A DNA stretch of 64,000 nt from Sulfobacillus sp. (GTDB lineage Bacteria > Bacillota > Sulfobacillia > Sulfobacillales > Sulfobacillaceae). A program made the position numbers and the translations under genes. This document shows, piece after piece, positions 50,934 through 54,712 of the stretch. The DNA is taken from assembly GCA_027309085.1 (NCBI GenBank), contig DAIDDL010000005.1:1-64000 (forward strand), read 5' to 3'. How positions within the stretch are numbered: position 1 is the stretch's first letter; each line of letters begins with the position of its first letter. A model generated the notes under the pieces. It ran no database searches. It was not told where the DNA came from and saw only the letters and a list, made by a program, of their open reading frames with translations.

Positions 50934-51377
50934 GTGACAAACACTATGCAGCTGCGGTTCCTTTCCGTGCCCGAAAACGTGGGCCTGGCACGGGTATCCA
51001 TCGCGGCCCTAGCCGGGCAGGCATCTTTTTCCCTCAACGATATTGACGAGATCAAGGTCGCGGTATCCGAAGCCGTGTCCAATGCGATTATTCATGGCTA
51101 CAGAGGTCAAAATGACGGCTGGGTCGAGGTGGCGGGAACACTGGACCCACACGGCATTACCATTGTGGTGGAGGATTTTGGTGTGGGTATCCGCGATATT
51201 GAGCAGGCCCGGCAGCCATCATACTCGACCGACCCTGAGCGGATGGGTCTCGGATTCGTGTTTATGGAATCTTTTATGCACGGACTGAACGTGCAGTCTA
51301 CGGTGGGCAAGGGCACCCGCGTGGAGATGCAGCGCTTTGTCACTATTCAGGGAGAGTTGTCCCGCGATGCCCAGTGA
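50934..51377 (+). CDS. spoIIAB: anti-sigma F factor SpoIIAB
   Basis: A 147-residue GHKL-type kinase and anti-sigma factor. The N box EAVSNAIIHGY, the G1 box VEDFGVGI and the G2 region ERMGLGFVFMESF are all present. It binds sigma F and phosphorylates SpoIIAA. GAGGAGG precedes the GTG at 50934. Its last 11 bases overlap the start of sigF, a layout that keeps the anti-sigma and sigma factor in balance. Length agrees with family members (about 145). Confidence 0.94.
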   Translation: MTNTMQLRFLSVPENVGLARVSIAALAGQASFSLNDIDEIKVAVSEAVSNAIIHGYRGQNDGWVEVAGTLDPHGITIVVEDFGVGIRDIEQARQPSYSTDPERMGLGFVFMESFMHGLNVQSTVGKGTRVEMQRFVTIQGELSRDAQ

Positions 51378-52128
51378 GGGGCATTGGCAGGATCCCCATG
51401 ACGAGTCCCAATTATATCGCTTAGCCCAGGCGGGGGATCCGGATGCCAGACGGGATTTGGTGGAAAAACACTGGAATTTGATTTGGCATATTGTCCACCG
51501 ATTCCAGGGACGGGGCTATGATCCAGAAGATCTGTTTCAAGTAGGTGCCATAGGGCTTCTCAAGGCCATCGAACGATTTGATGTAGACCGGGGCCTGAAG
51601 TTTTCCACGTATGCGGTACCCCTGATCATGGGGGAAATCCGCAGGCATATGCGCGACGACCAGCCGATTAGGGTGGCGCGGTCCCTAAGGGAGCTGGGCA
51701 TGCGTGTCGAACAGGTGCGGGCGCTTCTGTCCCAGCAGCTGGGCCGGGACCCGACACCGGCGGAAGTGGCCCACAAAATGGACATCGACCCTGCAGACAT
51801 TGCCGAGGCTGTGGAGGCGGTCCGGCCGCCCGCGTCGCTCAACCAGACAATCGAGTCATCGAGCGGGTCGGAAAAGCACCTCAGCGATGTCATCACGGAT
51901 AATCTGGGCGAAACGGAATGGCTGGAACAAATGGCCCTCAGCCAGGCTTTCCGGGCCCTTGACGAGCGGGAGCGCTTTATCTTGCGGGCGCGCTTTGTGG
52001 AGGGCAGGACACAGACGGAGGTGGCCCGCCAGCTGAAGGTATCGCAGGTGCAGATATCCCGCCTGGAGCGGCGGGCTCTAGACCGCATGAAAGTGGCCCT
52101 CACTGACGGCAGCGAGACGGACCCGTGA
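51367..52128 (+). CDS. sigF: RNA polymerase sporulation sigma factor F
   Basis: A 253-residue sigma-70 family factor directing early forespore transcription. Region 2 shows EDLFQVGAIGLLKAIERFD and FSTYAVPLIMGEIRRHMRDD, the latter being typical of SigF/SigG; region 3 runs LRELGMRVEQVRALL; region 4 ends with TQTEVARQLKVSQVQISRLE. ATG 51367 overlaps spoIIAB; an in-frame ATG at 51337 would extend into it and has no site. The order dacF-spoIIAA-spoIIAB-sigF is the classical operon. An intrinsic terminator lies 32 bases after the stop. Its regulon includes the downstream forespore genes. Confidence 0.94.
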   Translation: MPSEGHWQDPHDESQLYRLAQAGDPDARRDLVEKHWNLIWHIVHRFQGRGYDPEDLFQVGAIGLLKAIERFDVDRGLKFSTYAVPLIMGEIRRHMRDDQPIRVARSLRELGMRVEQVRALLSQQLGRDPTPAEVAHKMDIDPADIAEAVEAVRPPASLNQTIESSSGSEKHLSDVITDNLGETEWLEQMALSQAFRALDERERFILRARFVEGRTQTEVARQLKVSQVQISRLERRALDRMKVALTDGSETDP

Positions 52129-52130
52129 CG

Positions 52131-52161
52131 GAATAATGTCGCATGCCTATAGCCCATACTA
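52131..52161 (+). promoter_or_regulatory. forespore-type (sigma-G) promoter of spoVA operon
   Basis: GAATA (52131-52135) and CATACTA (52155-52161) fit sigma-G -35 and -10 elements with a 19-base spacer, the same spacing as at dacF. In Bacillus spoVA is sigma-G dependent. The predicted start point (about 52168) falls inside the sigF terminator hairpin, just after its left arm. Confidence 0.55.
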
Positions 52162-52198
52162 CTCCTGGACCATTACGGTCGCAGGAGTATTTTTGTTG
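52160..52198 (+). terminator. intrinsic terminator after sigF
   Basis: TACTCCTG (52160-52167) pairs with CAGGAGTA (52182-52189); GACC/GGTC extend the stem inside, and TTTTTGTT follows. It overlaps the -10 box of the spoVA promoter by two bases. Confidence 0.8.
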
Positions 52199-52214
52199 AG
52201 ACGAGGAGGGAACC

Positions 52215-52682
52215 ATGGCGAGCCAAGCTAAGCAGGGATCACAGAAAATGCAGGAATATCAAGATATGGCAAGCCAGATGCGCCCTAGAAAACCTTTGCT
52301 GAAGAATGCTCTGTGGGCATTTTTTGTCGGGGGGCTGATCAGTGAGGTGGGGCAGGGTGTGGAGTGGTTTTTCATGCAGCACGGACTCTCGGCCAAAGAA
52401 GCGACACCTCCCATGACGGTGGTGATGATTGGCCTAGGGGCTTTGCTGACCGGGTTGGGCTGGTATGACCGGGTTGTTAAACACGGGGGCATGGGAGGGT
52501 CTTTGCCCATCACGGGATTTGCTAATTCCATGGTCGCCCCCGCCATGGAATTCAGGACAGAAGGCCTGGTGCTGGGGGTGGGTGCCAAGTTGTTCACGGT
52601 AGCGGGGCCGGTGCTCGCCTACGGCCTGGCGGCGGCCTTTGTCGTCGGACTGCTCCGCCTTCTCATTACGGGGGGGGCGTAG
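52215..52682 (+). CDS. spoVAC: stage V sporulation protein AC
   Basis: A 155-residue membrane protein of the SpoVAC family with four hydrophobic segments. PLLKNALWAFFVGGLISEVGQ and GSLPITGFANSMVAPAMEFR match the family. SpoVA proteins form the channel for dipicolinic acid uptake into the spore and its release at germination. GAGGAGGG precedes ATG 52215. It starts the spoVA genes directly after the sigF terminator. No spoVAA and spoVAB are present between sigF and spoVAC, unlike in Bacillus. Confidence 0.92.
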   Translation: MASQAKQGSQKMQEYQDMASQMRPRKPLLKNALWAFFVGGLISEVGQGVEWFFMQHGLSAKEATPPMTVVMIGLGALLTGLGWYDRVVKHGGMGGSLPITGFANSMVAPAMEFRTEGLVLGVGAKLFTVAGPVLAYGLAAAFVVGLLRLLITGGA

Positions 52683-53708
52683 TTGGCCGTGACACGCCTC
52701 GGCCCATCCACCTACCAATTCGAGAACATCCGCATTCTGGCGGCTGCGGCAGTGGGGGGGCCTAAGGAGGGGGAGGGTCCGTTAGGGGCGTACTTTGACA
52801 GCATATGGCCTTCGGAGCTTAAGGACCATGCCAGTTTTGAAGTAGCCGAGCGCCACCTTCTGCTCGAAGCGCAGGACCTGGCGGTAAAAAAAGCGGCAGT
52901 GCCCTGGGAATCCATAGACATGGTCATGAGCGGGGACCTGCTCGACCAATTGGCCTCTACGAATTTTGCCGGCCGCGAACACCAGCGGCCTCTTGTGGGG
53001 CTGTTTGCCGCCTGCGCGGTGTTTACCGAAGCCCTGGGGTTGGGAGCTATGGCCATTGCCAGCGGCGGGCCCCGGAATGTTCTGGCCGCCGCTGCCAGCC
53101 ACCATATGGCGGCGGAACGCCAATTCCGGTTTCCCATTGAATTGGGATACCAGCGCACCCCGACGGCCGCATGGACCGCAACAGCGGCTGGAGCCTGCCT
53201 GGTTAGCGGCTCTGACGCCGTGGCAGGAGAGGGGGGCGTGTCAGTCGAATCCGTGACATTTGGGCGGGTGGTGGACTGGGGATCCAAAGACCCCAATGAT
53301 ATGGGCACGGCAATGGCCCCGGCAGCGTATGACACGATTTGCCGCCACTTTGAGGACACCGGCCGCTCGATTGAGGACTACGACCAGATTTATACGGGCG
53401 ACCTTGGGGTCTTTGGAGTGCGCTTGCTGTCGGCCTTAGCGCAAAAAGACGGGAAGCATTGGGATGAGCGCTTGGATGACTGTGGGAGGGCGCTCTATGC
53501 CATTGACAAGCAGGATGTCCACAATGGCGGTTCGGGGGCGGGTTGTTCGGCGAGTGTGTTCTCTGGGTTTATCTATAACCGGCTGGTCAAAAAAGACCTG
53601 CAGCGCGTGCTGTTGGTGGCCACTGGCGCCCTATTTTCCCCCACGACCTACCAGCAGGGGGAAAGCATTCCGTCGATAGCGCATGCTGTTTCCGTGAGGC
53701 GCCTGTAA
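52683..53708 (+). CDS. spoVAD: stage V sporulation protein AD
   Basis: A 341-residue thiolase-fold protein, the soluble part of the SpoVA channel that binds dipicolinic acid. The fold is recognisable from AACAVFTEALGLGAMAIASGG, ASHHMAAERQFRFPIELGYQ and QDVHNGGSGAGCSASVFSG. The start is TTG at 52683, immediately after the spoVAC stop and behind a G-rich site, so translation is coupled. Length matches family members (about 338). It is followed after 43 bases by spoVAEB. Confidence 0.93.
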   Translation: MAVTRLGPSTYQFENIRILAAAAVGGPKEGEGPLGAYFDSIWPSELKDHASFEVAERHLLLEAQDLAVKKAAVPWESIDMVMSGDLLDQLASTNFAGREHQRPLVGLFAACAVFTEALGLGAMAIASGGPRNVLAAAASHHMAAERQFRFPIELGYQRTPTAAWTATAAGACLVSGSDAVAGEGGVSVESVTFGRVVDWGSKDPNDMGTAMAPAAYDTICRHFEDTGRSIEDYDQIYTGDLGVFGVRLLSALAQKDGKHWDERLDDCGRALYAIDKQDVHNGGSGAGCSASVFSGFIYNRLVKKDLQRVLLVATGALFSPTTYQQGESIPSIAHAVSVRRL

Positions 53709-53751: not shown

Positions 53752-54102
53752 GTGATTTTTCTCTGGGCTTTTATCATTGGAGGACTTTTGTGTGTGGTGG
53801 CACAACTGACGCTGGACTTGTTTCCCCTGACTCCTGCCCACATTCTTGTGCTGTTTGTTGTAATCGGCGCCATCCTGGGCGGGGTGGGGCTGTATGGGAA
53901 ACTGGTGGCTGTAGCTGGAGCGGGGGCGAGCGTACCCTTGACCGGGTTCGGTTATACGCTGGTCACAGGAGTGGGCGAAGCTGTCAAAACCAAGGGCGTA
54001 TTGGGTCTCTTGACAGGAGGGCTGACGGCCGCCGCAGGGGGCATTAAAGCGGCCGTCCTGTTTGGACTGGCTGCCTCGCTGGTATTTAAGCCGAAAATCT
54101 AG
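53752..54102 (+). CDS. spoVAEB: stage V sporulation protein AEB
   Basis: A 116-residue membrane protein with three to four hydrophobic segments, related to SpoVAC. FIIGGLLCVVAQLTLDLFPL and GAGASVPLTGFGYTLVTGV are family hallmarks. GTG 53752 follows GAGGAGGGAG; it begins just after a non-coding ATG. It functions with SpoVAC and SpoVAD in the dipicolinic acid channel of the spore inner membrane. The gene order C-D-EB-EA-F is as in Bacillus. Confidence 0.92.
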   Translation: MIFLWAFIIGGLLCVVAQLTLDLFPLTPAHILVLFVVIGAILGGVGLYGKLVAVAGAGASVPLTGFGYTLVTGVGEAVKTKGVLGLLTGGLTAAAGGIKAAVLFGLAASLVFKPKI

Positions 54103-54136: not shown

Positions 54137-54712
54137 ATGGCAGAACGGAAACCCGTGATTATTGTGACGGATGGTGATGCAACGGCTTACCACGCTATAA
54201 AAGAAGCAAGCCAAGCCCTGAACTTGTACCCTCTAGAGGCATCGCGGGGGAATCCCACCCCCTTAACCGGGGCGGAACTGCTTGAGGCTATCGCTCGGGC
54301 GCCCCGGTCGCCCGTTGTGGTGATGGTGGACGACCGGGGGCAGGCTGGCACTGGCAAGGGAGAAAAGGACCTCGAAGCCCTCATGAATGCGGATTCGATT
54401 GAGGTCTTGGGAGTGGTGGCCGTGGCTGCCAATACTCACCCAGTGGAAGGGGTCCAGATTGACTCCTCTGTGTCAAAAACGGGTAAGGTGATGGCAGGGC
54501 GGGCGGTGGACAAGGGCGGCAATGCCGTACGGGGTGATGTGCTCCGGGGCGATACGGTCGATGTGCTGTCTGATGACGTGGGCACGGTGCCGATTATTGG
54601 GCTGGGAGACCCGGGAAAAATGGGTGGCCATGATTCGATAGGGCACGGAGTGCCCGCCACCCGCAAAGCATTGGAAGAAATACTGCAGAGGAGTGGATAC
54701 GGTGCGCGTTGA
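54137..54712 (+). CDS. spoVAEA: stage V sporulation protein AEA
   Basis: A 191-residue soluble protein beginning KPVIIVTDGDATAYHAIKEA and containing EASRGNPTPLTGAELLEAI and VVVMVDDRGQAGTGKGEKDL, matching SpoVAEA of Bacillus (about 200 residues). The fold looks like a Rossmann-type domain; its biochemical role in spores is unclear. ATG 54137 is supported by AAGGAGGAG; longer in-frame forms lack a site. Its final 11 bases overlap the start of the next gene, so it is coupled to spoVAF. Confidence 0.9.
   Translation: MAERKPVIIVTDGDATAYHAIKEASQALNLYPLEASRGNPTPLTGAELLEAIARAPRSPVVVMVDDRGQAGTGKGEKDLEALMNADSIEVLGVVAVAANTHPVEGVQIDSSVSKTGKVMAGRAVDKGGNAVRGDVLRGDTVDVLSDDVGTVPIIGLGDPGKMGGHDSIGHGVPATRKALEEILQRSGYGAR

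What the first reader, a model, noticed from the sequence alone, without database searches (positions are those of the whole stretch)
52131..52198. spoVA promoter embedded in the sigF terminator
A sigma-G-like promoter (GAATA, 19 bases, CATACTA) ends at 52161, two bases into the left arm of the sigF terminator. The predicted start point, about 52168, lies right after this arm. Transcripts from sigF can fold the hairpin and stop; transcripts from the spoVA promoter lack the left arm and escape. This would insulate spoVA from sigF read-through without extra sequence.
Basis: partly seen in the sequence, partly recalled or inferred. Interest (0 to 1): 0.6.

Follow-up and report, generated by a model that had tools for sequence, protein, structure and literature searches.

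The report
Forespore promoter nested in sigF terminator
In Sulfobacillus and its relatives the start site of the spore-membrane operon spoVA lies inside the hairpin that stops transcription of the preceding sigF gene, so transcripts arriving from sigF should be cut off while transcripts that start here escape; the layout is conserved across the family and disappears where the two genes have moved apart.

Summary
A forespore-type promoter (GAATA-19-CATACTA, 52131-52161) overlaps by two bases the left arm of a strong intrinsic terminator (52160-52189, about -18 kcal/mol, then TTTTTG) between sigF and spoVAC. In 31 of 31 Sulfobacillales loci with sigF next to dodecin/spoVAC the hairpin begins at -1 to +2 relative to the end of the -10. 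Stems covary; one other family has an entirely different stem in the same register. A matching -35 (GNRTR, 17-19 bases) is complete in 22/31 loci, against 6% of shuffles. Starts at +6 or later destroy the terminator in 30/31. Background at other -10-like sites is about 1%. In two lineages where sigF no longer directly adjoins the operon (three genomes), the promoter survives but hairpin and U-tract are gone. In other Bacillota sampled, terminator and promoter stand in tandem. New variant of a known kind (start-site-dependent escape from a hairpin); no description for sporulation genes was found, and no RNA data were available.

The parts
51367..52128 (+). sigF (spoIIAC), last gene of spoIIAA-spoIIAB-sigF; stop TGA 52126-52128
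   Evidence: best NCBIfam match TIGR02885 spore_sigF, 262 bits, below its 321 cut-off; SigB/F/G subfamily model over cut-off; neighbours are spIIAB (over cut-off) and a SpoIIAA-like STAS protein
52131..52135 (+). -35 element GAATA of the forespore (sigma-G-like) promoter
   Evidence: GNRTR at 17-19 bases in 22/31 orthologous loci versus 6.2% of shuffles
52155..52161 (+). -10 element CATACTA
   Evidence: present as [CA]A[TC]A[CA]TA in 31/31 order loci; same -10 upstream of some SASP genes
52160..52171 (+). terminator left arm: outer TACTCCTG 52160-52167, inner GACC 52168-52171
   Evidence: covariation
52167..52169 (+). predicted transcription start (first purines, +6 to +8 after the -10)
   Evidence: inference from spacing; first purine from position +5 on lies at +6 or +7 in 31/31
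52172..52176 (+). terminator loop ATTAC
52177..52189 (+). terminator right arm: GGTC, bulged G52181, CAGGAGTA
52190..52195 (+). U-tract TTTTTG
   Evidence: at least 4 T in the 8 bases after the hairpin in 31/31, at least 5 in 26/31
52204..52209 (+). Shine-Dalgarno AGGAGG of spoVAC, outside the hairpin in this genus
52215..52682 (+). spoVAC, first gene of the spoVA operon
   Evidence: TIGR02838 over cut-off, PF03862
52683..54712 (+). rest of the operon: spoVAD 52683-53708, spoVAEB 53752-54102, spoVAE(A) 54137-54712
   Evidence: PF07451, TIGR02839, PF14097

Best explanation
The short stretch between sigF and spoVAC is a promoter-in-terminator insulator. RNA polymerase coming from the spoIIA operon transcribes the whole inverted repeat, the RNA folds into a 12-bp hairpin followed by a U-tract, and transcription stops before spoVA. 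A forespore holoenzyme (sigma-G most likely, possibly sigma-F as well) binds GAATA/CATACTA and starts at about 52167-52169. The outer left arm is the stretch between the -10 and the start, so it is never in that RNA: the remaining GACC/GGTC stem ends nine bases before the U-tract, no terminator forms, and spoVA is made. Because the promoter lies upstream of the terminator, the start has to fall inside the left arm for spoVA to be expressed at all, which explains the fixed register. Shown: sequence, register, conservation, covariation, loss on uncoupling. Inferred: termination efficiency, exact start, sigma factor, biological benefit (keeping spoVA off until the late forespore stage).
For: Hairpin begins at -1 to +2 relative to the end of the -10 in all 31 loci (10 or so genera of the family plus one genus each of two other families of the order; L048 read by eye because the script anchored on an upstream motif). 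Outer stem kept in 31/31 with compensatory changes: pair 2 TA/CG, pair 5 CG/TA/TG, pair 7 AT/GC/TA; G035 has an unrelated stem GCGCCGTCGGC/GCCGACGGCGC in the same register; 11 double-changed cells versus 4.4 +/- 2.5 shuffled. Terminator-competent hairpin in 31/31 full-length RNAs, 1/31 for a start at +6. -35 in register. Covariance model finds one copy per genome at this place in 30 of 42 genomes of the order, with one additional copy in one genome, and 2 of 199 across the phylum, both of this family. Where sigF no longer directly adjoins the operon (G013/G021; G016) the promoter is kept and the hairpin with U-tract is gone. SASP promoters share the -10 but lack the CTCCYG arm, so the arm is not part of the promoter consensus. 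In other Bacillota with both elements recognised, the terminator ends 13 or more bases before the -10.
Against: No RNA ends measured. Spacer is 19 here. L074 and L023 have poor U-tracts (TTCACATT, GTTATCAT), so termination there may be weak or factor-dependent. Nine of 31 loci lack a complete -35 match. Relatives are not independent, so 31/31 is not 31 events; the independent points are about four (family f1 with its stem variants, f3 with an unrelated stem, and the two uncoupling events).
Confidence: 0.82

Rival explanations
1. Coincidence: an ordinary sigF terminator beside an ordinary downstream promoter that happen to touch.
For: Tandem terminator and promoter is the common layout in other Bacillota, and intergenic space is short.
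Against: Register fixed in 31/31 loci across many genera with changed stem sequences; background rate about 1%; promoter survives without hairpin where sigF is elsewhere.
Confidence: 0.04
2. The hairpin acts mainly on translation: the right arm (AGGAG/GGGAGG) is a Shine-Dalgarno hidden in read-through RNA and exposed in RNA that starts inside the repeat, as in IS10-type protection.
For: In nine dodecin-type loci the right arm is the dodecin SD and the U-tract is the SD-ATG spacer.
Against: In Sulfobacillus itself spoVAC has its own SD outside the hairpin (52204-52209), yet stem and U-tract persist with compensatory changes. Predicted SD exposure rises only from 0.25 to 0.37. Most likely a second layer in the dodecin-type loci, not the main function here.
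Confidence: 0.1
3. The hairpin is an attenuator or 5' stabiliser acting on spoVA RNA that starts upstream of the left arm.
For: A start at +1 or +2 would keep the hairpin in 30/31 and 23/31 loci.
Against: Starts 1-2 bases after a -10 are not expected for sigma-70 family enzymes; the hairpin is absent where sigF is not directly upstream, which a spoVA-specific attenuator would not predict.
Confidence: 0.04

Closest known systems
Protection of IS10/IS50 transposase genes from outside transcription (from memory: Davis, Simons and Kleckner 1985; not found in the held library)
   Same: Read-through RNA carries both arms of an inverted repeat and is silenced; RNA from the element's own promoter starts inside the repeat, lacks the left arm and is expressed.
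   Different: There the block is mainly hiding of the ribosome site; here it is an intrinsic terminator with a U-tract, and the promoter belongs to a developmental sigma factor of the host.
Phage T4 lysozyme-type early/late transcripts (from memory: McPheeters et al. 1986)
   Same: Long early RNA folds a hairpin over the start region; the late promoter starts within it and escapes; separates two developmental stages.
   Different: Translational block, phage late promoter, no terminator.
Tandem sigF terminator followed by a forespore promoter before spoVA/dodecin, as in Desulforamulus, Heliophilum and other Bacillota
   Same: Same gene order, terminator and CATAMTA promoter between sigF and the next gene.
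   Different: Terminator lies wholly upstream of the promoter and does not overlap it; nothing depends on start position.

Membership tests
Intrinsic (Rho-independent) terminator | Stable GC-containing hairpin | tested here: met
   -18.2 kcal/mol, 12 pairs with one bulge
Intrinsic (Rho-independent) terminator | U-tract directly after the stem | tested here: met
   TTTTTG at 52190-52195; at least 5 T of 8 in 26/31 loci
Intrinsic (Rho-independent) terminator | RNA 3' ends at the U-tract | not testable with these tools
   no RNA data
Sigma-G promoter | -10 CATNHTA | tested here: met
   CATACTA; conserved and shared with some SASP genes. Consensus recalled from memory
Sigma-G promoter | -35 GHATR at 17-18 bases | tested here: inconclusive
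   GAATA fits, spacer 19 rather than 17-18; 25/31 loci have their best match at 17 or 18. Consensus recalled from memory
Sigma-G promoter | Expression dependent on sigma-G | not testable with these tools
   C. difficile spoVAC operon is controlled by both factors yet has a consensus closer to sigma-F (PMC7438776), so sequence alone does not decide
IS10-type protection from outside transcription | Own transcript starts inside the repeat and lacks the left arm | tested here: inconclusive
   predicted by spacing; start not mapped
IS10-type protection from outside transcription | Repeat hides the ribosome site of the protected gene | tested here: not met
   spoVAC SD 52204-52209 lies outside the hairpin in the window; met by anatomy only in dodecin-type relatives

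The most novel reading that the evidence does not exclude
Sulfobacillales use a compact developmental insulator in which the sigF stop codon or its neighbourhood carries the -35, the discriminator is a terminator arm, and, in the ancestral dodecin form, the other arm is the Shine-Dalgarno and the U-tract its spacer, so that one short sequence blocks both transcription and translation from the earlier sigma-factor operon while allowing the later one. A second copy before an oxidoreductase gene in G011 suggests it can be reused.
Probability: 0.5. Interest if true: 0.68.

Novelty: new variant of a known kind. Interest (0 to 1): 0.57.

Why it matters
It would show how a terminator placed downstream of a promoter can still insulate a developmental operon: the start site decides whether the terminator exists in the RNA. 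It gives a directly testable, sequence-encoded rule (start at +6 or later frees the gene) and a compact natural insulator part. It also offers a handle on why spoVA might have to be kept silent until the late forespore stage, and a search template (-10 ending within two bases of a terminator arm) for other genomes.

Tried and rejected
Stock promoter/terminator scan missed both elements: it looks for sigma-70 consensus and unbulged stems. Rfam: nothing relevant. Looking for the element elsewhere in the phylum by covariance model: only this family, though a sequence model cannot find the same layout with other stems (it also missed L074). MAFFT alignment A1 is off register in a few rows, so the pair counts understate pairing; the per-locus folds were used instead. 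SD hiding as main function rejected for the window (own SD outside the stem). Family f2, genus g12 (L075-L078) has CAGACTA followed by possible hairpins without U-tract; left as inconclusive. Literature phrase search for promoter within terminator found nothing; the library lacks most subscription journals, so this is weak evidence of novelty. The B. subtilis spoVA promoter paper (Moldover et al. 1991, from memory) could not be read, so whether B. subtilis shares the layout is untested.

Full report
Where it is. The window belongs to a Sulfobacillus-like genome (G000; closest relative in hand G004, the S. thermotolerans Kr1 contig L004/L031; sigF 92% identical). The genes are spoIIAA, spoIIAB, sigF (51367-52128), then spoVAC (52215-52682), spoVAD, spoVAEB, spoVAE(A). 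The gap between sigF and spoVAC is 86 bases.

What is there. GAATA 52131-52135, 19 bases, CATACTA 52155-52161; hairpin 52160-52189; TTTTTG 52190-52195. The hairpin folds at about -18 kcal/mol and is far more stable than shuffles (z -4.35). The -10 overlaps the arm by two bases.

Is it chance. Among 42 -10-like motifs in the window only this one abuts a terminator. Over all fetched loci of the group, setting this element and one second copy aside, 2 of about 250 do.

Conservation. 31 loci of the order where sigF lies next to dodecin or spoVAC were compared. In all of them the hairpin's first pair lies at -3 to +2 relative to the last base of the -10, in 30 of them at -1 to +2 (in L022 the fold extends the stem back to -3; L048 was read by eye because the script anchored on an upstream motif). 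The stem varies while staying paired: CTCCTG/CAGGAG, CTCCCG/CGGGAG, CCCCT/GGGGG, and in G035 (another family) GCGCCGTCGGC/GCCGACGGCGC. The pair-count tool gives 11 double-changed cells against 4.4 +/- 2.5 in shuffles. A -35 of the form GNRTR at 17-19 bases is complete in 22/31 against 6.2% in shuffled upstream sequence; in several loci it overlaps the sigF stop codon.

The promoter is real and the arm is not part of it. SASP genes of the same group, standard forespore genes, carry -10 elements such as CATACTA, GATACTA or AATAATA but no CTCCYG after them. So CATACTA is a plausible forespore -10 in this lineage and the CTCCYG arm is extra.

Start site and escape. With the start at +6 to +8 after the -10 (the first purines), the terminator-competent hairpin falls from 31/31 loci to 1/31 (L023, whose U-tract is poor anyway); at +1 and +2 it is still present in 30 and 23 of 31. 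The remaining GACC/GGTC stem in the window ends nine bases before the U-tract and is not expected to terminate. Since the terminator lies between the promoter and spoVA, a start before the arm would shut the operon off, so the register is not free to drift.

A natural control. In G013 and G021 (same genus) sigF and dodecin-spoVAC lie on different contigs with unrelated flanks; in G016 about 250 bases separate sigF from dodecin. In all three the -35 and -10 before dodecin remain (GAGTA-17-CATACTA, GAGTA-17-AATACTA), but no hairpin with U-tract follows. These are two independent events. No strong conventional terminator was seen after sigF in these genomes. The simplest reading is that the hairpin is there because of sigF, not because of the spoVA message.

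Elsewhere. In other Bacillota sampled, including Desulforamulus and Heliophilum, the sigF terminator, where recognised together with a -10, lies upstream of a CATAMTA promoter and does not overlap it (13 or more bases apart). A covariance model finds the element once per genome in 30 of 42 genomes of the order between sigF and dodecin/spoVAC, plus one further copy in G011, and in 2 of 199 genomes across the phylum, both of this family.

The dodecin form. In nine relatives the first gene after sigF is dodecin (PF07311). There the terminator's right arm (AAGGGGG or AGGGAGG) is the Shine-Dalgarno and the U-tract is the 7-10 base spacer before ATG. Dodecin between sigF and spoVAC is common across the phylum sample, so Sulfobacillus has probably lost dodecin and kept the terminator. 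Folding predicts only a modest gain in SD exposure in the short RNA (0.25 to 0.37), so translational blocking is a possible second layer, not demonstrated.

Verdict. In kind it resembles start-site-dependent escape known from IS10 and phage T4 (from memory), but with an intrinsic terminator and a developmental promoter; no description of this arrangement for sporulation genes was found in the library available, which lacks most subscription journals.

Noticed in passing
L010, L011, L016, L025, L026, L030, L071, L073, and many phylum loci: A dodecin gene sits between sigF and spoVAC in much of the phylum sample, behind a forespore-type promoter; this points to dodecin as a forespore protein. 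No paper on dodecin in sporulation turned up.
   Followed up: partly
L150 (G011:C1:3378710-3378757): A second copy of the promoter-in-terminator layout between an ammonium-transporter-like gene and an FAD-dependent oxidoreductase gene, with ATG right after the U-tract and GGTTA as -35.
   Followed up: partly
L075-L078 (family f2, g12): The -10 candidate before dodecin is CAGACTA and GC-rich hairpins may follow it without any U-tract.
   Followed up: no
window 52196-52231: TTG mini-ORF of 11 codons, 8 bases after the AGGAG of the terminator's right arm; possibly a relic of the lost dodecin start.
   Followed up: no
L008, between sigF and spoVAC: The dodecin position holds an ORF that does not look like dodecin, with SD and ATG still at the terminator's right arm.
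   Followed up: no
L111-L126 (SASP loci): Some SASP genes have GGTGATACTA or GGTAATAATA as -10, closer to a sigma-F or dual sigma-F/G element, with GGGTAAA as -35.
   Followed up: no
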